IMG/VR virus record: IMGVR_UViG_3300032249_000847
Coordinates: 1-34,196 of that record
Source of the DNA: a virus
DNA length: 34,196 nucleotides
Direction: 5' to 3' (one strand)
The position numbers were made by a program, and so were the translations under genes. Below, in pieces: positions 886 to 16,318 of the stretch; position 1 is the first letter of the stretch, and every line of letters starts with the position of its first letter. The notes below the pieces were generated by a model. It was not told the origin of the DNA and ran no database searches. It saw only the letters and a list, made by a program, of their open reading frames with translations.

Positions 886-915
886 TGGTGGAGCTAAGGG
901 GATTCGAACCCCATC
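886..915 (-). other. attP: Probable attP core: 3' end of a tRNA gene (best fit tRNA-Ala)
   Basis: On the minus strand this reads as a T-arm (GGGGTTCGAATCCCC) followed by TTAGCTCCACCA, which is a tRNA acceptor 3' strand with discriminator A and encoded CCA. The acceptor strand TAGCTCC would pair with GGGGCTA, including the G3:U70 pair characteristic of tRNA-Ala. Upstream on the minus strand no D-arm, anticodon stem or 5' acceptor strand can be found within 76 nt, so this is only a tRNA 3' end. A tRNA 3' fragment next to a tyrosine integrase is the usual structure of a phage attP core that rebuilds the host tRNA on integration. The exact core boundary cannot be set without the host sequence. 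Confidence 0.75.
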
Positions 916-1004
916 TTTTAACGTCCATTTTGGCCCCTGAACTGCTAGTTCTTGTTTTGGGATGTGCCCCACAGTACCCCACGCGACCTGCTGGAACACG
1001 TTTA

Positions 1005-1640: not shown

Positions 1641-1876
1641 TCGGTGTCGATGTCTGAACTTTCGCGTAGTTCGGACGCAGCTTGCAGCAGACCATCGGTC
1701 TGCCACTCCGGTTGTTCAGCCGGTGCCCACACCCACGCGGTGGATTCAACAGCCCCGTCAGGTGTGATGCGTTGCAGCCCGAGCGCCAAGACGAACTCTT
1801 GGACGATAAAGCCGTCCCCTTCGGCGTTGAGCAGCTTCTGGATGGCGTTCCGCAGCCGATCTGCTGGGCTGATCAC
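1637..1876 (-). CDS. Hypothetical phage protein, last gene of the late operon
   Basis: The likely start is GTG at 1874-1876, which overlaps the upstream gene's TGA as GTGA; a longer frame reaches 1927 but would overlap that gene by 55 bases. The 79-residue product starts MISPADRLRNAIQKLLNAEG and has a predicted helix, then a central hydrophobic stretch (FIVQEFVLALGLQRI), a Trp-rich segment (TAWVWAPAEQPEWQ) and an acidic C-terminus. It resembles small proteins encoded near the lysis region of other actinophages, but I cannot name a function. It ends in TAG, overlapping the convergent gene by four bases, with no terminator between the two. Confidence 0.65.
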   Translation of the reverse strand: MISPADRLRNAIQKLLNAEGDGFIVQEFVLALGLQRITPDGAVESTAWVWAPAEQPEWQTDGLLQAASELRESSDIDTD

Positions 1877-2097
1877 CGGGAAGCCCTGACCGCAATCTGG
1901 TGCAGCGGATCTATGCGCTTGGGCCATTGCCGCAACAAGTGCATGGCGATGTAGAAGATTGTGCCATTGGTGATGACCGGATGGCGGCGGCGGTAACGGT
2001 CGACGGCTTCGGAAAGCAGTTCGCCTTTGGGCGCCGCCACTTCATACAAGACAATGCCAGCCGCCAACGTTAGCCACGCCACATCGCCGTGTTTCAT
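1873..2097 (-). CDS. Small conserved actinophage protein with hydrophobic segments
   Basis: The ATG at 2095-2097 overlaps the upstream TGA as ATGA. The 74-residue product has a hydrophobic N-terminal segment (VAWLTLAAGIVLYEVA, about residues 6-21), a charged stretch containing LLSEAVDRYRRRHP, a second hydrophobic stretch (TNGTIFYIAMHLL) and a basic tail. The pattern (VAWL-AG-Y-, P-GE-LSEAVDRY--RHP) is familiar from small actinophage proteins of unknown role encoded after the lysis genes. One or two membrane passes are likely. Confidence 0.7.
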   Translation of the reverse strand: MKHGDVAWLTLAAGIVLYEVAAPKGELLSEAVDRYRRRHPVITNGTIFYIAMHLLRQWPKRIDPLHQIAVRASR

Positions 2098-2720
2098 AGC
2101 AGAGACATCCGTGACACACTCCCCGCGTTCAAAAGGTAAACGAGACCGCCCCGGCGGTTAGTTGATCCGCGCTTCTCCCGATACCAGTCAGACCCGCAGT
2201 CATAGGTGCTTGTCTGGATTCGGGTTTTGTGTTCAGTGGTTTCAACCTGCCAACTGTGGTAGTGGCCGTGCTGCAATATCTGCGCGGCCCCTGCTGGCTG
2301 AAGGTTCAATGATTGATCGCTCCACCACTTGAATGCTTGTCCTGGTCTCCACTGGTGTCCGTGGATGACGGTGACAACGGTGTCTCCCACGGGCACTGTC
2401 ATCGACCCTGACCACCGTTCAGGCACCCGAACCGTCACATGACCAAATGCGCTGGGGTTCAGGGTTAGGGCGTCGGACACTGCGATGGCCGATTCGCAGG
2501 CCCAGTTGTCACCCGGCCAGGTGTTCTGCACCCGCTGGCTTTCGTCGTGGTTTCCCCCGACAACATCTAGGAACACCTGATCAACCAGCGGCGCGAATTG
2601 TTCCACCGTGTGCATCATCAATCGGCGCAGGATTCGACACTGTTCGGTGATCGCTTGGTCAGTCAGAACAAGGTTGCGGCTCTGCTGAGACACCCAACCC
2701 TCAATGCAGTCCCCCGGCAT
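2094..2720 (-). CDS. Metallophosphoesterase, C-terminal part downstream of an in-frame amber
   Basis: This is the larger part of a calcineurin-like metallophosphoesterase. It holds the second motif (MPGDCIEG), the third (VVGGNHDES), the fourth (VIHGHQW) and the fifth (HGHYHSW), which supply ligands for the two catalytic metals. The first motif lies in the preceding frame segment (2769-3251). The frame is open back to 2768, directly after TAG 2771-2769, and the 16 codons between that TAG and the ATG at 2720 (EFKSLKRHGVEGIQIC) read as normal protein of this family. The ATG has no good ribosome binding site. The fragment alone lacks one metal-binding motif, so it is either made only by amber readthrough or is part of a decayed gene. 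Phage members are thought to be nucleases or phosphatases; substrate unknown. Confidence 0.75.
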   Translation of the reverse strand: MPGDCIEGWVSQQSRNLVLTDQAITEQCRILRRLMMHTVEQFAPLVDQVFLDVVGGNHDESQRVQNTWPGDNWACESAIAVSDALTLNPSAFGHVTVRVPERWSGSMTVPVGDTVVTVIHGHQWRPGQAFKWWSDQSLNLQPAGAAQILQHGHYHSWQVETTEHKTRIQTSTYDCGSDWYREKRGSTNRRGGLVYLLNAGSVSRMSLL

Positions 2721-2768
2721 GCAAATCTGGATGCCTTCAACGCCGTGGCGTTTCAGTGACTTGAACTC

Positions 2769-3251
2769 CTAGACCGCTGCGTCAACGGATTGCATGTAGC
2801 GTTCCACGATCTGTTCGGTCGCTCCATCACGGCTGCGTTTGCCTATCTGAAGATCGCCGGCCATGAAGGTGAACCAGTGCGGCCCGGTCCCCACCTTGGG
2901 TTGTTTCTTGGCCCGAGCAACGATGGCTTCCAGATCAGCCGGGGCTGATGCTGAGCCCTTGGCGGCGATCTGAAATTTGAACGCCGTCAGCCACGTCGTT
3001 TCGTAGTCGCTGGTTCCCCGTATGCGGGCTCGCTGCTGCCACTTCGATATGCGGGGATGCCCGACGATCTGCACAACGTCAGGGTTATATCCGAATTGGG
3101 ATAGCAGTTCGTTGTAGTCGGCGGGCGGTTCTTTCAGCACCCCGGTCTGTAGGTATCCGGTGGTGCCGTCGAATTCAGTTTTGGGTTGGTACTTGGTTTC
3201 TTCGGCTTGCGGGTAAGCCTTCAGGTCTTCTAGGCGGTCTTCAAGCGTCAT
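2769..3251 (-). CDS. Metallophosphoesterase, N-terminal part ending at an in-frame amber
   Basis: This is the N-terminal 160 residues of the metallophosphoesterase continued at 2094-2768. It begins with a charged extension (MTLEDRLEDLKAY), has a middle region with a conserved look (YNPDVVQIVGHPRISKWQQR) and carries the first metal motif (FMAGDLQIGKRSRDGATEQ). It stops at TAG 2771-2769, after VDAAV. The frame resumes in phase immediately after the stop. I prefer ATG 3251 as start, with AGG nine bases before it and an 11-base overlap with the upstream gene; an ATG at 3275 is possible. On its own this piece lacks four of the five catalytic motifs. Confidence 0.72.
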   Translation of the reverse strand: MTLEDRLEDLKAYPQAEETKYQPKTEFDGTTGYLQTGVLKEPPADYNELLSQFGYNPDVVQIVGHPRISKWQQRARIRGTSDYETTWLTAFKFQIAAKGSASAPADLEAIVARAKKQPKVGTGPHWFTFMAGDLQIGKRSRDGATEQIVERYMQSVDAAV

Positions 3252-3483
3252 CGGCTGCCTGATGGTGTCGGACATGATTGCGGAGTCCGCTGACGCTGAC
3301 CTTTAAGGGGTTTTCTTCGCTGGCGCAGATTTCCCACAACTGAACGAGTGAGTGCTTCTCAGTGACCCAATCATCGAATGCCTTGCGGTCTGCTTTGGGT
3401 AGCGTTTCCAACCAGAAGCATGTGACACACCCACGGTTTGAGCGGGCTACTACGACCGTATGTAGACGGTTTGCAAGAGACAC
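3241..3483 (-). CDS. Small actinophage protein, possible helix-turn-helix
   Basis: The frame begins at GTG 3483 with AAGGGAGA upstream and encodes 80 residues. It contains RGCVTCFWLETLP near residues 17-29, then AFDDWVTEKHSLVQLWEICA, and ends in a basic NHVRHH motif. The helical middle followed by VSVSGLRNHVRHH looks like a small DNA-binding fold, and short proteins of this pattern occur in other actinophages, but no function is established to my knowledge. It precedes the metallophosphoesterase and overlaps it slightly, so the two are probably co-translated. Confidence 0.65.
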   Translation of the reverse strand: MSLANRLHTVVVARSNRGCVTCFWLETLPKADRKAFDDWVTEKHSLVQLWEICASEENPLKVSVSGLRNHVRHHQAADDA

Positions 3484-5588: not shown

Positions 5589-6947
5589 CTACGCTTGGAT
5601 GGTTCGGCTTGCAGGTTTCACAATTAGAGTGCGGCTACCTGAAACCACAATGGTTCGTTCTTCTGGCCGCACGGCGAAGATGTCCCGGATAGTGGGAATC
5701 GGTGTCAGATACACCGCGACAGCCAAGGTGGCAGTTCCACCAGTAACCCGGATGTCGGCTTTGGCTGGGCTGAGAAAAATGGGTAACAGTACGTCAGGTG
5801 TGCCCCCAATGACGGTGATTGACGCCGCAGTGGGTTCCAGATCTATGGGGTTGATGACGACAGGTGTTCCACCGGTCACTGTTACCGCAGCGGAAGCAGG
5901 ACTGAGTACAGTCACCGCAATCAGGACCGGTGTGCCGCCGGTAACCGGCAGGGTTGCCGATCCTGGGACCGTCGACAGCAGAAGTGTCGGAGCGGTGCCG
6001 GTCACGGTGATCGCCGCTGCTGCGGGAGTGATTACCGATACCCCGGCGGTAGACGGTGTGCCGCCGATGATCGTGACCGTGGCCCCTGTCGTCACCAGTG
6101 ACATGGTCAACGTCGGAGCAGATCCGGTGACGGTGATGAGCGCCCCGGTCAAGCTGCCACCGGGTGGGGTGACGATGATGTCGAGCTTGGGTGCCCTGCC
6201 GGTGACTGCGATGGTGGCGGCAGCCGGGGTAAGTACTGATTCAGTGACCAGTGTCGGCGCAGTTCCGGTGACCGTGATACTGGCGCCAGCCGGTGTCAGC
6301 GTTGTTGTCGTCGCTGAACTTAGAACAACACTGCCTGATGCCCATGCGTTAGCGATACTAATCGTTGCGCCGAATGTTGCCGTAGAAGTTGAATCGCTGA
6401 TTGCTAGGCATGCACAGTTTGCATTAGGAGTGTTTGTGATGAGCGTTCGGTTTGTTCCACCGGTTGCAGAACTAATGGACGCCTTGGTGTTGCCGGAAAA
6501 GTAACCTTGTATGTCGCCTGCGCCAAGGCCGCACACGATCATCTGTCCGGTCGATGCAGTGATTGAATCCGACGAGAGTGATGTCGATGATCCAGAGGCA
6601 ACTTGCAAAGTGCCGACGCTGGTGACTCCGGTGTACGAAACCGTGTTAGCCGCCCACCATGACGATGCGATGGTGGCGGTTACTGCCGTTGCAGACGTAG
6701 AAGTGACACCGGATTTGCGATAAACGAACAGGATTCCTTTAGCTGCATCGTTGTTGCAGTTTCGGCTTCCAACCAGGGTCATTGCCGAGCCGCCGTAGTT
6801 GACGCTTGACGGGGTTACCTGACGATCTACAAGGATGAAGAGGAATACATCGACGCCCGACGTGGCGGGCGTGTGATTAAACGAGAGGTTTCCGGGAGCG
6901 ACGGTGTTGTACTGCCCTGGTCCCTTCGCATCGTATGCGACGGCCAT
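5589..6947 (-). CDS. Minor tail or fibre-like protein with nine tandem ~22-residue repeats
   Basis: The N-terminal 210 residues (MAVAYDAKG onward) are rich in Ser, Thr and Gly and look like a beta-sandwich domain common in phage appendage proteins. Residues 213-410 hold nine copies of a repeat with core [ILV]-x-V-[TI]-G-[TGR]-[AT]-P-x-[LV], at residues 224, 246, 271, 291, 313, 333, 355, 377 and 399; most are spaced 20-22 residues, one 25. Each core is followed by a hydrophobic strand and a Pro-containing turn. The regular strand-turn pattern suggests a stack of short beta modules, as in fibrous adhesins. The C-terminal 40 residues are basic. It sits between other appendage genes and lysA and ends TAG just before lysA. 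Host attachment is inferred. Confidence 0.7.
   Translation of the reverse strand: MAVAYDAKGPGQYNTVAPGNLSFNHTPATSGVDVFLFILVDRQVTPSSVNYGGSAMTLVGSRNCNNDAAKGILFVYRKSGVTSTSATAVTATIASSWWAANTVSYTGVTSVGTLQVASGSSTSLSSDSITASTGQMIVCGLGAGDIQGYFSGNTKASISSATGGTNRTLITNTPNANCACLAISDSTSTATFGATISIANAWASGSVVLSSATTTTLTPAGASITVTGTAPTLVTESVLTPAAATIAVTGRAPKLDIIVTPPGGSLTGALITVTGSAPTLTMSLVTTGATVTIIGGTPSTAGVSVITPAAAAITVTGTAPTLLLSTVPGSATLPVTGGTPVLIAVTVLSPASAAVTVTGGTPVVINPIDLEPTAASITVIGGTPDVLLPIFLSPAKADIRVTGGTATLAVAVYLTPIPTIRDIFAVRPEERTIVVSGSRTLIVKPASRTIQA
5718..6311 (-). repeat. Coding tandem repeats, nine copies of a ~66-bp unit
   Basis: These repeats encode the ITVTGTAPTL-type modules. Four core starts are exactly 22 residues (66 bp) after the previous one and were probably generated by in-frame duplication. 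The nucleotide copies have diverged while the protein core is kept, so this is not a recent expansion. Confidence 0.7.
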
Positions 6948-7836: not shown

Positions 7837-7940
7837 GCCCATTCGGGAAGGTCGTCGCACAGCGTTCCGATGGCGGCATAGACGAACACGGCCCACGCCA
7901 CGACCACGATCACCGCGGCGGCGGCGGTCTTACAAGCCAT
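7833..7940 (-). CDS. Tiny single-pass membrane protein (35 aa)
   Basis: The ATG at 7940 lies within the last codons of the upstream lyase-like gene, an 11-base overlap, and the frame ends at TGA 7835-7833. The protein has a short basic start (MACKT), one hydrophobic helix (AAAAVIVVVAWAVFVYAAI) and a short acidic tail (CDDLPEW), consistent with an inner-membrane peptide with its C-terminus outside. The overlapping starts and stops on both sides argue for a real gene. No family is recognised. Confidence 0.6.
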   Translation of the reverse strand: MACKTAAAAVIVVVAWAVFVYAAIGTLCDDLPEWA

Positions 7941-8697
7941 CTTCGGTGTCGGCGATGCGGTAGTTGGCGTGGTGAATGATCCCAGTCGGATAGGACACAC
8001 CTGCCTGCCGGTACAAGCCGCACTTGTAGAAAAACGTGCCCGACGTGTTATTCAGCACGGTCTTCCCGGTGAACGTCTGCCCCGTCGTTGCTGATGCCCA
8101 GTTGGTGGAGTTGTAGCGCAGGGTTTGTCGGGCGCCGTTGATCCAGACGCGCACGAATCCGGCGCCTGCGGTGTCGTACCAGCCGACGTGCATCTTCACA
8201 TCAATCCACTGGCCGCGATTCATCGGCACATCAAGCAGCCGCCGGATAGAGTTAGGCGCATCGGAAAGGTCGCTGTACATCAGCGTCCAGGTGCCTGATG
8301 GGCTATGACCGTCTTGGTGATTGCCGAATCCAAAAGCCAATGCGGAAGCGTCGGGCCACTGGTTGGTCACGCCCCACCCGTGATCAACCGCTGAGTTCAG
8401 CGGAAACGTTGTGTCAAATTTGACGCTGAACGCTTCCCACCGGCTCACGTTGATGGCGCGGGGATCGTCAGCGATTTCGCAGCGCTCGTTTACGGTGATG
8501 TTGATGTCGCCGGGTCTGACTTCCACCCGAGCGGCGTAGCCGCAGTCCCGGTCCTCATTTACCACCTGGAGCGGGTACTGCAAGTAGCCGTTATAGGTGG
8601 CGGTGCCTTCGGAGTAGTCCTTGGCGACCGTGTTCTGGATCACATCCCACTGCTTGAAGTCCCGCGTAGAGAAGTCGCCAGTGAATATGCGTCCCAT
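7930..8697 (-). CDS. Polysaccharide lyase-like / lectin-fold appendage protein
   Basis: The 255-residue protein (MGRIFTGDFSTRDFKQWDVIQ onward) has the pattern of the jelly-roll heparin- or glucuronan-lyase-like domains in actinophages. Features are GDFST-DF-QW near the start, YAARVEVRPGD, the strand EAFSVKFDTTFPLN, the WTLMYSDLSD segment, RGQWIDVKMHVGWYDTAGAGFVRV and a C-terminal YKCGLYR. The RGQWID-K-H--W pattern, with a following WINGARQ strand, is typical of that fold. It may bind or cleave a host surface glycan during adsorption. Without a structure comparison I cannot say whether catalytic residues are retained. It lies among tail fibre genes. Confidence 0.68.
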   Translation of the reverse strand: MGRIFTGDFSTRDFKQWDVIQNTVAKDYSEGTATYNGYLQYPLQVVNEDRDCGYAARVEVRPGDINITVNERCEIADDPRAINVSRWEAFSVKFDTTFPLNSAVDHGWGVTNQWPDASALAFGFGNHQDGHSPSGTWTLMYSDLSDAPNSIRRLLDVPMNRGQWIDVKMHVGWYDTAGAGFVRVWINGARQTLRYNSTNWASATTGQTFTGKTVLNNTSGTFFYKCGLYRQAGVSYPTGIIHHANYRIADTEDGL

Positions 8698-8898: not shown

Positions 8899-11607
8899 TT
8901 ATGCCGTCCCTAACATAATTCTTGGAGAGTTGGCGACTATTGAAAAGCCAGATTCCGCGCCCCAACTACTGGGAAGTGCGCTGGTCACTCCCGACAAGTT
9001 CCAACTGTCGTTGCCCTGTCCCAGGTTGTACGACTGTGAAGAATAGGTGTGAAAGCCGCCGATAAAGCTGTCGGATCGCACCGTGCACGTTGCCGTTTGA
9101 GATACCAGCGTCAGGTAATACATCCCAGCCGTTAGGGTTTGGCTAATGGTGATCGTTTTCACGCCAGTTGATGTGGCATCGACAGTTCCGGCATCCAGTA
9201 CCAACGTTGAAGGAACGCCATTGCTGTCGGAGTTGTAAATGCCCAGCCGTAGCACAGCGCCCGTTGTCCCACCACCACTGACAGCACAACTGATCGCGTT
9301 AAAGGTGAGCGTTGCAGGGACGTAGATACGGGCCGTTCGCATGAAACCCAAACCAGTGCCAAATGTTGAGTTTTGTCCACCACCGGAATGAAGCCAACGG
9401 CCACTACTGGGGGTGGAGACAGTGACCACGTTTCCCGGCGCGGCCCCCGTGGCACCTGTAGCGCCCGTAGCACCAGTGGCGCCGGTCGCACCAGTGGCAC
9501 CGGTCGCACCCGTGGCACCCGTGGCGCCGGTCGCACCTGTCGGGCCGACACCGCCTGCTGACCAGCCAGTGTTACCGGAGCCGGACTCTTTGATGTACAG
9601 CGTCGTATTTGCGCCGCCATCAGTGCGCGTATAGACCGAACCGACCGGCGCGGTCACTACACTCTCCGGCGATCCTGTGCCCGAGCTAATCGTCGCAGCG
9701 GTGCCGCTGACCGACACAGTGCCCGCATTATCGACCCGGAACTTCGACGCCCCACCTACCTGCGCGTCGATAAGAAGCTTGGTGCCTGATCCGACGGTCG
9801 ACTCTGTCGGATTGATCAGCAGTTGGGTATAGCCCGCAGTTGATGTTTGGGTAACGGTAGGCGAGATCGAGACGCCGTACTGTCGGCCCGAAGTCGCGCC
9901 CTGGCCGCCGTTGACTCCTAGCTGCGTTGCGGTGTCAGCGCCGGATGAAGGATTGATCTGCACATAACCGACAGTCGGACCCTGGAATGCCGGATAGACG
10001 CGGAATCCGGCTTGCAGCACGATGCTGCGCAACCCGCCGGTGCCGCCTCTTTCCGTATAGAGATAAAACAGATTCGTGGCCCAAGTAGCGCGGACTCGCT
10101 CAAAGTTGGTGGTCTGGTCTGCGGTGTTGTAGAAGTCGACCGTGGCAGCGTTGGGCACTACCGTCGCCCCGTCCAGCGTGGCGGCCGTGATGGTCTTGTT
10201 CGTGACCGTCTGGGTGCCGGTCGTGGTGACCACGGGAACGCCGTTGGCCTGCACCACGCCGCTGGCGCCTTGGCTTTCAAGGTTCAAGTTGACGTTGGTG
10301 TCGGTAAAGGACTTCGCCGCGATCTTCACCGCAGCACCGGTAGCCGTGGCGGTCGACTCGAGATAGTTCACCGGGCTTGCTTGGGCAGTGAACACGAATG
10401 CCGGCTGGCCGCCAGTCGCCAGCGCGGCCACGCTTCCATTCGTGGGGCGCAGTTGCAGGTTGGCGCTCGCACCGATGGTGCTGGTTGCTCGGATAGTGGG
10501 AGAATTCGGGAATGCCGCATTGGTGATCTGAATGTGTGCGGTGGCGTTAGCTGTCGGATTGGCCGAGATGACCGGGTTGCCGTTCACATCGTCTAGCTGA
10601 TCGAACCGCGCATCAAGAAGTGTTTTGTTGGTCAGGCTGGCCCGAACTGAATCGTAGTAATCGTTGATCGCCGCCGGGGCAAACGAATCAGTCAGCACGA
10701 TCCAGACACCCGAAACGTAGCGCAGATGCACGCTCTGGCCCGGTAGCGACAGTTGCAGCCACGAAGGGCCAGTTGTCGCCGTATTGAACGTGTCGCTTCC
10801 GGTGCGCTGCACCAGCACGGTGTTGCGGGTGGCGTCGACCTTTTTGACAACAATCGTTGACCCGGAAGCTGGTGCCGAAGGTAGCGAGATTGTGAAACCA
10901 CCCGCAGTGGCATCGGCCCGCACAATGTCACCAACAGCAGCGGTATAGGCAGCCGTTTTTATGGTCGTTGGGTTTCCGATAAAGTCAACGCCGCCAGGAC
11001 CGACTGCTGCCCTTGCAGCGGCCGAGTCGGCAGCGATGATTAACGAGTTGCCTGTAGCAGTCGCCCCCAATGTCGTCCTAGCCGCCGCCGCAGTAGCGGC
11101 GGTCATAAGTCCTTGTCCGACCGCTGTCGAGTCAACAATTTCGTTGCTGTAAACCAGCTGCGGCTGCATAACAGACGGAGAAGGTAAACCGCTCGACTGA
11201 AGGACGTTGGCTAAGTTGATAGACACATCAGTTTCGGGGGCTTCAAAGTAACCGCCGTCGACCCGAACCTGCTCCCCCACGGGAGTTGTCAGCGAAAAGG
11301 TGACCTTGTATGTCAAGCGCTCAAGTTCCAGCACTGGGTCGTTGGCCCACAACCGAACACCGACAGCACCACTACGAGCGGACTTCAACCTGCCGTCGAC
11401 ATCAATGAACCCGGTGAAACTCCGTAGTTTGAACCCAGCCGGGCGAGGCGAATAGGACGGGGCCAGGACAGCTCGATCATCAGCGGTGACGGGCTCAAAC
11501 AGCACCGAACCAATCAACGGGATGATGTCTGCGTCGACACCGTCATCGCCGGAATCGGTATTACTAGCCAGCAGATCGTAGTTGACGGTGAAGTTGATGA
11601 TCGCCAC
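8899..11607 (-). CDS. Collagen-like tail fibre / minor tail protein (902 aa)
   Basis: The GTG at 11607 overlaps the previous stop as TAGTG. The N-terminal 150 residues (MAIINFTVNYDLLASNTDSG onward, including FTGFIDVDGRLKS) form a globular domain that probably anchors to the tail. A long Ser/Thr/Ala-rich fibre follows, with recurring TG-QTVTNKTI and NKTLLDARFD motifs typical of phage fibre shafts. Near residues 687-722 there are ten Gly-Ala-Thr triplets preceded by GPT and ended by GAAPG, a collagen-like triple helix. The C-terminal 180 residues form a beta-rich head domain (GFMRTARIYVPATLTF onward) likely to contact the host. Collagen-like triplets trimerise fibres in several phages. Confidence 0.85.
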   Translation of the reverse strand: MAIINFTVNYDLLASNTDSGDDGVDADIIPLIGSVLFEPVTADDRAVLAPSYSPRPAGFKLRSFTGFIDVDGRLKSARSGAVGVRLWANDPVLELERLTYKVTFSLTTPVGEQVRVDGGYFEAPETDVSINLANVLQSSGLPSPSVMQPQLVYSNEIVDSTAVGQGLMTAATAAAARTTLGATATGNSLIIAADSAAARAAVGPGGVDFIGNPTTIKTAAYTAAVGDIVRADATAGGFTISLPSAPASGSTIVVKKVDATRNTVLVQRTGSDTFNTATTGPSWLQLSLPGQSVHLRYVSGVWIVLTDSFAPAAINDYYDSVRASLTNKTLLDARFDQLDDVNGNPVISANPTANATAHIQITNAAFPNSPTIRATSTIGASANLQLRPTNGSVAALATGGQPAFVFTAQASPVNYLESTATATGAAVKIAAKSFTDTNVNLNLESQGASGVVQANGVPVVTTTGTQTVTNKTITAATLDGATVVPNAATVDFYNTADQTTNFERVRATWATNLFYLYTERGGTGGLRSIVLQAGFRVYPAFQGPTVGYVQINPSSGADTATQLGVNGGQGATSGRQYGVSISPTVTQTSTAGYTQLLINPTESTVGSGTKLLIDAQVGGASKFRVDNAGTVSVSGTAATISSGTGSPESVVTAPVGSVYTRTDGGANTTLYIKESGSGNTGWSAGGVGPTGATGATGATGATGATGATGATGATGATGATGAAPGNVVTVSTPSSGRWLHSGGGQNSTFGTGLGFMRTARIYVPATLTFNAISCAVSGGGTTGAVLRLGIYNSDSNGVPSTLVLDAGTVDATSTGVKTITISQTLTAGMYYLTLVSQTATCTVRSDSFIGGFHTYSSQSYNLGQGNDSWNLSGVTSALPSSWGAESGFSIVANSPRIMLGTA
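9448..9537 (-). repeat. Ten 9-bp repeats encoding Gly-Ala-Thr (collagen-like)
   Basis: Ten consecutive 9-bp units encode G-A-T with varied third bases (GGT/GGC, GCC/GCG/GCT, ACC/ACG/ACT/ACA), directly followed on the coding strand by a GAA triplet and preceded by GPT at 9538-9546. Synonymous variation argues for selection on the protein triplet rather than a fresh slippage product. Confidence 0.9.
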
Positions 11608-13750: not shown

Positions 13751-16318
13751 TTATTGCGGGGCCAGCGTGAGGACGTTAATGGTTTCCTGTATGCCGGTGA
13801 TGAGTCGCTGGAAGCGGGCTATGGGTGCTTCTTCTGCTTGGCCGTCACCGATTTGTACTATGACTTTGGCTCGTTCTTGCCTGTTGTCGGTGATGATGAT
13901 TGATTCGATGTAGTCGGTGTATAACACGCCGCTTTCAGCAATGGACATCATTGCGCCCGGGAATATGTCGCGGCCGACAGCGTAGGGGTATCCGTTTCTG
14001 AAATGCGCGATGGCTGACCGATAGCCGCGCGAATCCCACATCGCGGTAATAAATGAAAACAAAGCGTCGATATTGTACGGCGCTGCCCCGGTTGCTACGA
14101 ATTTTTCTGGCTTGCCGTAAGGCCCCATGCTGTTTCTGCGTTCAAAGTTTTGCGTCAACTGGAAACTGAGCAGCACATCATTGAACAATCCGTCTAGCAG
14201 GTTAGAGGGCACACCAGTAAGACCCAAAACAATCATTAGAGAATCGAGAATCCACGACGTGGTTGCATTGATCAGATCGTTGAGCCATTTGGGGCTACGG
14301 CCACCAATGACGATTTGCCAACCCTGTGGGTGGTGGTCAACAATTTCGAAGCGTTCCAAAGGCCCACGCGGGTGGTCAATGAGAATTGTCCATGGTGTCA
14401 CATAGTCCACCCCGACCGTTGGGGCGATAAACACGCCGTCCGGGGCGTAGACGCCGTCAGGGTTCAGGAATGGCTCTAGAGCATTCCCGAACACGGACCC
14501 TTCGAGGGTGACTAGCTGTTTGATGACTGAGTCGATGATGGTTCCGGTCGGGCCGGTGACGTTTGACCGGTCGGTGACTCTGACGACGTATGTGGGTACT
14601 GAGAGCCGTGCTGCGCTGTCAGGTTGGGGATCTCCGGGCAGCCACAGCTCTACCTCGACAGTGACGCCGTAGCCGGTAATTAACTTATCTAAAACTGTTG
14701 CTACTGTTTCCATGCGCGAGGTGATAGCGACGAGAGGGCTGCCGTCTGTTAGCGGGTTGACGTGACACACGTAAAGCGGTGTGTGGAGCATGTCGAAGAA
14801 ATTGCCGCGAGACTGTAGGACCGTGCCGAACCAGGCCCGCCAATCGAAGTTGAGGGAAGCAGCATTGTTGAGCAGTTCCCACAAACCGGATTGCAAACGA
14901 AATGCCTGCTCGGCAATCATTACGTTTATTACGCTGACAATGGGTCCCACAAACACTGCCCGGTTTGGTATTTGTGTCTGGATGGGCAGCAAAAAATTGG
15001 GCCAAATTAGCAAGTAAGAAAGATAGTCGAACAGTCCGTGGGCTTTTATTTGCAGTGTGCGTTGGCCGTCATCGAGTTTCATGCTGGCTTCTTCGACGGT
15101 GTAAGCCCATCGAATGGAACCTGTTTCCACTGTGATGCCGATAACTTCGTTACGGCAGTTACGCATGATGGGCACTAAAGGATCGGAGCCCTTCAGTGTC
15201 ATCATCAACACGGGAATTTTGTTGCGCGGTTTAGAGGCAGTTAATTCGATGTAGTCGCCGGCTTCGGCGATGGGGCGCCAAAACTTGTCGTATACCGTCA
15301 CGACAATCTCAGGTGCCTCCGAGGCACGTCGGCTGACGACCATGCTTGCTTCGCTGATGGCTTCGTAGCCGTCGCCTTTGAGTGCTTGCCGCAAGGACCG
15401 TATTTCGTTGCGCTGGCGCGACAGGATGGGCGCGGGCGGCAACGCCGCTTCCCCCACTTCGGTCAGATAGTTGACGGCCAAGTCGACAGCTGACGCTGTG
15501 GTGTTACCGGGCAGGTTGGTGTATGTCCAGTGATATTGGACGTGGGGGCTGTTGTTCAAAACAGGATCCTGCGCCAGCGGAACAGCCGCAGCCATCAACA
15601 TTGCTTGGAAGAGCAGTGAAGCCAAGTCTTCAATGTCTTCGAGGGCCAACGCCAATCCCTGGAAGAGTCCTGCGTCGAACTGCTCAACGATCTCTTCAAT
15701 GAAATCAACGAGGCCCGAGTAGTCCTGCTGCAAGAAGTCGAATACACGTTCTTGCGCGCGGCCGGCGTTGGTGTTGAACGGGCAGTCGGCAACGATGTCG
15801 CCTGTGTTGACGAAGTCCCACCAGCGCGAATCTGGTTGGGCCATTATGTCGCTGCCGTAAGCGCCGCGACTGTTGGCGCCGCCAGGGCTTGATCCGCCTG
15901 GTATTGACCAGCCGGGGTAGCGACGAGGATTGCCGAAGACAACGGCGGCCAACAAATCTTCATCGCGGTCAGCTAGTGAGCCGCCCCGAATTTCCTCGTA
16001 GATGCGCGAGACAACGATGGCGCCTTGGCTGGTGCCTGCCATCGCGAACTTGCGTCCGGGCGGTAACTGCTCAATGAGGGCTTTCAGGTTGTCGAAGCCT
16101 TGAGTGGCAGTCTGATCCATTTGTAGGAAGGACTGAATGGTCATGGCGTCACCGGGGTAGCCGACATCAACGATGTCCCACACGTCGGGATCAAGCCGCC
16201 TGCCGACACCGTTTTCGTAGTGGCCAGCTGTCTCGATGGCTTCTGTGCCGAGCAACTGCTGGAAGCCGCGAGAACCGGTGCCGCGGACCATGAAGAGGGT
16301 GTGTTTTATAAAGGCCAT
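13751..16318 (-). CDS. Baseplate minor tail protein with N-terminal LysB/cutinase-like esterase domain
   Basis: Residues 1 to about 270 read as an alpha/beta hydrolase of the LysB/cutinase group. They contain FMVRGTGS near the start, VGYPGDAM, the nucleophile elbow AGTSQGA with Ser 97, AAVVFGNPRRYPGW, an acid candidate in VNTGDIVADC (Asp 174 or 178), and a His candidate in NSPHVQYHW (His 259 or 263). Order and spacing fit the Ser-Asp-His triad of phage LysB enzymes, which cleave mycolic acid esters from arabinogalactan. The remaining 585 residues match large baseplate minor tail proteins (IEVTVYDKFWRPI-like strand, FDYLSYLLIWPNF, PLYVCHVNPLTDGSPLVA). ATG 16318 overlaps the upstream gene by 13 bases. 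I infer a virion-associated esterase that opens the outer lipid layer at infection. Confidence 0.82.
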   Translation of the reverse strand: MAFIKHTLFMVRGTGSRGFQQLLGTEAIETAGHYENGVGRRLDPDVWDIVDVGYPGDAMTIQSFLQMDQTATQGFDNLKALIEQLPPGRKFAMAGTSQGAIVVSRIYEEIRGGSLADRDEDLLAAVVFGNPRRYPGWSIPGGSSPGGANSRGAYGSDIMAQPDSRWWDFVNTGDIVADCPFNTNAGRAQERVFDFLQQDYSGLVDFIEEIVEQFDAGLFQGLALALEDIEDLASLLFQAMLMAAAVPLAQDPVLNNSPHVQYHWTYTNLPGNTTASAVDLAVNYLTEVGEAALPPAPILSRQRNEIRSLRQALKGDGYEAISEASMVVSRRASEAPEIVVTVYDKFWRPIAEAGDYIELTASKPRNKIPVLMMTLKGSDPLVPIMRNCRNEVIGITVETGSIRWAYTVEEASMKLDDGQRTLQIKAHGLFDYLSYLLIWPNFLLPIQTQIPNRAVFVGPIVSVINVMIAEQAFRLQSGLWELLNNAASLNFDWRAWFGTVLQSRGNFFDMLHTPLYVCHVNPLTDGSPLVAITSRMETVATVLDKLITGYGVTVEVELWLPGDPQPDSAARLSVPTYVVRVTDRSNVTGPTGTIIDSVIKQLVTLEGSVFGNALEPFLNPDGVYAPDGVFIAPTVGVDYVTPWTILIDHPRGPLERFEIVDHHPQGWQIVIGGRSPKWLNDLINATTSWILDSLMIVLGLTGVPSNLLDGLFNDVLLSFQLTQNFERRNSMGPYGKPEKFVATGAAPYNIDALFSFITAMWDSRGYRSAIAHFRNGYPYAVGRDIFPGAMMSIAESGVLYTDYIESIIITDNRQERAKVIVQIGDGQAEEAPIARFQRLITGIQETINVLTLAPQ

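What the first reader, a model, noticed from the sequence alone, without database searches (positions are those of the whole stretch)
2094..3251. Metallophosphoesterase interrupted by a single in-frame TAG
The frame reads from ATG 3251 to TAG 2771-2769 and continues in the same phase through a well-conserved stretch (EFKSLKRHGVEGIQIC, then MPGDCIEG) to TGA at 2094. Metal motif 1 lies before the TAG and motifs 2-5 after it, so neither piece alone should be active. Many other genes here end in TAG (short chaperone, kinase, the 91-aa gene), so this is not a global recoded code. Possibilities are amber readthrough, host suppression, a fresh nonsense mutation or a sequencing error. One base change from AAG, GAG or CAG would restore the gene. 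The rest of the gene looks intact, arguing against long decay.
Basis: partly seen in the sequence, partly recalled or inferred. Interest (0 to 1): 0.65.

Follow-up and report, generated by a model that had tools for sequence, protein, structure and literature searches.

The report
Phage nuclease gene with nonsense mutation
A mycobacteriophage-like virus carries a DNA-cutting enzyme gene that is intact in nearly all its relatives but has one stop codon in the middle here, most likely an ordinary recent knock-out mutation (or a sequencing slip) and not a new decoding trick.

Summary
In detail: on the minus strand, ATG 3251 (or 3275) opens a frame that meets TAG at 2771-2769 and continues in phase to TGA at 2096-2094. 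The gene is an Mre11/SbcD-like metallophosphoesterase exonuclease (phrog_284), the "MRE11" gene downstream of the lysis cassette in cluster K-type mycobacteriophages. The closest relative (IMG/VR 3300032305_000585, about 95% DNA identity in this gene) has a gap-free ORF of the same length with a serine codon there. Of 83 fetched relatives none has a stop at this site, and 82 are uninterrupted; one has a frameshift about 20 codons upstream. The site is a variable position inside the helix between metal motifs I and II. No sign of recoding: TAG ends 6 of 36 genes, coding density is 94%, no tRNA is found, and another TAG in almost the same context separates a tail gene from lysin A. Restart at ATG 2720 would lose motif I. 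On the window's branch the part after the TAG kept strong purifying selection (3 amino-acid against 11 silent changes), so the TAG is recent or an error. Most likely an ordinary recent amber nonsense allele. Interest low. More unusual: a lysin B-like esterase fused to a minor tail protein (13751-16318).

The parts
2094..3251 (-). Mre11/SbcD-like exonuclease (metallophosphoesterase) gene, interrupted; alternative upstream start ATG at 3275
   Evidence: (phrog_284 on both halves)
2769..2771 (-). in-frame TAG (codon 161); Ser codon in the closest relative, variable position across the family
2772..3275 (-). 5' piece (168 aa from ATG 3275, 160 aa from ATG 3251): N-terminal part plus metal motif I and half of the first core helix
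2094..2720 (-). only restart ORF after the TAG (ATG 2720, 208 aa): motifs II-V, lacks motif I; no good Shine-Dalgarno before it
3241..3483 (-). upstream neighbour (80 aa, phrog_1738), overlapping the nuclease start; intact
1873..2097 (-). downstream neighbour (74 aa, DUF7427), overlapping the TGA; intact

Best explanation
A recent, single-lineage amber nonsense mutation in an otherwise intact phage gene for an Mre11/SbcD-like exonuclease. Translation ends at the TAG and gives a 160-168-residue fragment that holds metal motif I but not motifs II-V. This phage therefore makes no active enzyme from this gene, which would mean the gene is dispensable in it. Shown: the stop, the intact relatives, the absence of recoding signs, the recent date. 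Inferred: that the stop is real in the virus, that it terminates efficiently and that activity is lost.
For: Closest relative (L001/L018/L035; 95.8% and 94.5% DNA identity over the two halves) has a gap-free ORF of equal length with Ser at the site. 83 relatives: no stop at the site, 82 uninterrupted. Known mycobacteriophages and a Gordonia phage carry one undivided ORF. The neighbouring genes compared with the relative are intact. After the TAG the window's branch shows 3 amino-acid against 11 silent changes, where neutrality would give about 27-49 amino-acid changes (P under 1e-8; at most about 12-22% of the branch neutral). TAG ends 6 of 36 genes, coding fraction 94%, no tRNA. Two of the three post-TAG changes hit conserved positions (T252C, Thr in all 83 relatives; E378S, Glu in 57 of 83), which fits a beginning loss of constraint. 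Relatives' products are toxic to M. smegmatis when overexpressed (PMC10700055, PMC11797047, PMC11373665), so a broken allele could be tolerated or favoured.
Against: No reads are available, so an assembly or base-calling error is not excluded. The low amino-acid change after the TAG is equally what readthrough would give.
Confidence: 0.66

Rival explanations
1. Sequencing or assembly error, or a minority variant caught in the consensus of a virus contig; the virus population has an intact gene.
For: The record is a linear virus contig of 34,196 bases that may be a fragment. The TAG is the only interruption among about 36 genes and the flanking genes are clean.
Against: Substitution errors in a consensus are rare (general knowledge), no other broken gene is seen, and two other multi-base codon changes at conserved positions lie on the same branch.
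Confidence: 0.24
2. The TAG is read through, by leaky termination or a host or phage amber suppressor, giving a full-length enzyme at low level, perhaps to limit a toxic product.
For: The site is a variable position inside a helix, so many residues would be accepted. The downstream half is still under purifying selection. Homologues are toxic when overexpressed (PMC10700055, PMC11373665).
Against: No relative has a stop there, including the toxic homologues' group. No tRNA in the window, no unusual RNA structure (z +0.86), and a TAG in nearly the same 3' context (TAG GAA) at 5589-5591 serves as a stop just before lysin A in frame and is kept in the relative.
Confidence: 0.07
3. Two working genes: the 168-aa piece and a separately initiated 208-aa piece that assemble into a split enzyme.
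For: An in-frame ATG exists at 2720 and both pieces keep their motifs.
Against: The break is in the middle of the first core helix, between motifs I and II. The ATG is the Met of MPGD, found in 66 of 83 relatives, so it exists for protein reasons. No good ribosome binding site, and no relative with two genes was seen.
Confidence: 0.02

Closest known systems
MRE11-like double-strand break endo/exonuclease of cluster K mycobacteriophages (phrog_284; Hammy gp34, Adephagia gp35, Amelie gp31)
   Same: sequence family, length, metal motifs, place downstream of lysin A, holin and two small genes
   Different: one internal TAG; about 54-65% identical to the closest known mycobacteriophage copies over the 3' half; no lysin B gene in the cassette
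Mre11/SbcD nuclease core and archaeal PolD DP1 3'-5' exonuclease (solved structures)
   Same: fold of residues 121-385 of the intact relative: DP1 Z 18.4, Mre11 Z up to 15.8, SbcD Z 13.5-13.8
   Different: about 12% sequence identity, motif I is D-x-Q; the first 120 residues are not covered by these matches
Phages with TAG recoded to glutamine (code 15, crAss-like and others; PMC11210395, PMC9523058)
   Same: an in-frame TAG inside a conserved gene
   Different: one gene only, TAG used as a genuine stop elsewhere, coding density already 94% under table 11

Membership tests
Phage MRE11-like exonuclease (phrog_284) | match to the profile along its length | tested here: met
   the two pieces match adjacent parts of phrog_284, E 8.8e-10 and 1.3e-65
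Calcineurin-like metallophosphoesterase | motifs I-V (D-x-H/Q, GD, GNH, H, GH-x-H) | tested here: met
   present in the window frame if the TAG is ignored; invariant in 43-44 of 44 relatives; Pfam Metallophos_2 E 0.0011, below its cut-off
Calcineurin-like metallophosphoesterase | Mre11-type fold | tested here: met
   AlphaFold model of the intact relative, pLDDT 83.8; DP1 and Mre11 top matches
Calcineurin-like metallophosphoesterase | nuclease activity | not testable with these tools
   none measured here; annotation only
Recoded (TAG = amino acid) phage | many genes with in-frame TAG, TAG avoided as stop, low coding density under table 11 | tested here: not met
   one gene; TAG ends 6 of 36; coding 94%
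Recoded (TAG = amino acid) phage | Sup-CTA tRNA | tested here: inconclusive
   no tRNA in the window, but the record may be incomplete
Programmed readthrough gene | stop conserved among relatives, with stimulating context or structure | tested here: not met
   0 of 83 relatives have the stop; RNA fold z +0.86

The most novel reading that the evidence does not exclude
The TAG is a selected attenuator: occasional readthrough supplies a trace of a host-toxic nuclease in this phage lineage.
Probability: 0.04. Interest if true: 0.5.

Novelty: new member of a known kind. Interest (0 to 1): 0.13.

Why it matters
Little by itself. If real, it shows that this widespread and, in tests on relatives, host-toxic phage nuclease can be interrupted without visible damage to the rest of the genome, so it may be dispensable. 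It also illustrates how an isolated in-frame TAG can be told apart from recoding by comparison with relatives.

Tried and rejected
Megablast of the gene against phages: no match. Exact search for the TAG neighbourhood in viral contigs: only the intact relative. Genome contigs with a single protein: nothing; with an alignment: 8 relatives in actinobacterial genomes. Profile against PDB sequences: no match. First structure model (10 sequences) was weak, pLDDT 65.5; its Foldseek list was superseded by that of the second model. RNA structure near the TAG: nothing unusual. Promoter-like site near the restart: none. Papers on amber mutants in mycobacteriophages: none held for the terms used. Recoding, split gene and conserved readthrough were considered and rejected as above.

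Full report
What is there. On the minus strand the frame opens at ATG 3251 (or ATG 3275, also in frame), meets TAG at 2771-2769 and continues in phase to TGA at 2096-2094. The 5' piece matches positions 38-165 and the 3' piece positions 172-385 of one profile, phrog_284, annotated exonuclease. This is therefore one gene with one stop in it. Metal motif I lies before the stop, motifs II-V after it.

Relatives. The nearest is IMGVR_UViG_3300032305_000585 (L001, L018, L035): 95.8% and 94.5% DNA identity over the two halves, no gaps, the same length, and a serine codon at the site. Two further close relatives from another sample (L036/L020, 79% protein identity; L037, 75%) have Ala and Gly there. 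Of 83 relatives from viral contigs and bacterial genomes none has a stop at the site. The column holds R 37, E 17, A 11, D 5, Q 5, S 3 and others. The only interrupted copy, L095, carries a frameshift about 20 codons upstream of the site. The annotated phages I opened (prophiGD91-2, WXIN, Octobien14, Hammy, Gengar, Malthus) have one undivided gene. In the cluster K-type phages among them (Hammy, Gengar, Malthus) it sits downstream of lysin A, lysin B, holin and two small genes.

Structure. An AlphaFold model of the intact relative (44 sequences, mean pLDDT 83.8) has the site within helix 145-169, between the strand that leads to motif I and the strand that ends in motif II. Residues 121-385 match archaeal PolD DP1 (Z 18.4) and Mre11 (Z up to 15.8). 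Termination there leaves no complete phosphoesterase core. The only restart codon, ATG 2720, yields 208 residues without motif I; the sequence before it has no good Shine-Dalgarno at the usual distance.

Age of the stop. Changes between the window and L035 were assigned to branches with L036 and L037 as outgroups. After the TAG the window branch has 3 amino-acid and 11 silent changes, the L035 branch 2 and 10. Without constraint, 11 silent changes should come with roughly 27-49 amino-acid changes; 3 or fewer has P under 1e-8, and at most about 12-22% of the branch can have been neutral. So the gene was translated to its end for most of the branch. The TAG is recent, absent in the real virus, or not felt. 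Two of the three changes fall on conserved positions (Thr 252, the same in all 83 relatives, and Glu 378), each needing two or three base changes in the codon. That hints at constraint beginning to relax, but the numbers are small.

Recoding and readthrough. Of 36 called gene ends (the nuclease's own TGA included), TGA closes 18, TAA 12 and TAG 6, and coding covers 94%. Phages that recode TAG show a median coding capacity near 67-69% under the standard table before re-annotation, and about half carry a Sup-CTA tRNA (PMC11210395). No tRNA was found here, though the record may be incomplete. A second TAG, followed by GAA at 5589-5591, is the stop of a tail gene and lies in frame with lysin A; efficient suppression would fuse the two. 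That stop is kept in the relative. The RNA around the nuclease TAG folds no better than shuffles (z +0.86).

Possible cost or benefit. Homologues are toxic to M. smegmatis on overexpression: Hammy gp34 nearly abolishes growth (PMC10700055), Amelie gp31 and Waterfoul gp34 are moderately toxic (PMC11797047), and Adephagia gene 35 is among the most toxic (PMC11373665). A broken allele may therefore be tolerated or even favoured. This is inference.

Verdict. An ordinary recent amber nonsense allele is most likely (0.66); an error or minority variant in the contig is next (0.24); readthrough (0.07) and a split enzyme (0.02) have no positive support. Reads would settle the first two.

Noticed in passing
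window 13751-16318 (-): 855-aa ORF whose first ~290 residues match lysin B-type endolysins (phrog_102, E 2.9e-38; Pfam Cutinase and PE-PPE above cut-off) and whose rest is a minor tail protein (phrog_110, E 7.5e-164). No lysin B gene sits between lysin A and holin, where cluster K phages have it, and no phage record has one place covering 80% of this ORF. A possible virion-borne mycolate esterase; worth its own look.
   Followed up: partly
window 886-937 (-): 52 bases that match the two ends of tmRNA, mainly its 3' end (Rfam RF00023, 20.1 bits, below the family cut-off), beside an integrase gene at 3-800: probably attP, as cluster K1 mycobacteriophages integrate into the host tmRNA gene (PMC3203893).
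   Followed up: partly
L095:1-995: A second broken copy of the nuclease gene: a frameshift just after motif I, about 20 codons upstream of the position of the TAG.
   Followed up: partly
L035:2501-3655 (model mf7d224b9cb41): The phage 'MRE11' family scores better against the archaeal PolD DP1 proofreading exonuclease (Z 18.4) than against Mre11 itself (Z 15.8); the first 120 residues, with a beta-rich part, are untested.
   Followed up: no
window 8899-11607 (-): 902-aa tail-region protein with a short collagen-like repeat (residues about 684-722, weak Pfam Collagen match).
   Followed up: no
window 7930-8697 (-): 255-aa ORF among the tail genes matching Pfam Polysacc_lyase (E 5.5e-17, above cut-off), a candidate virion depolymerase.
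   Followed up: no
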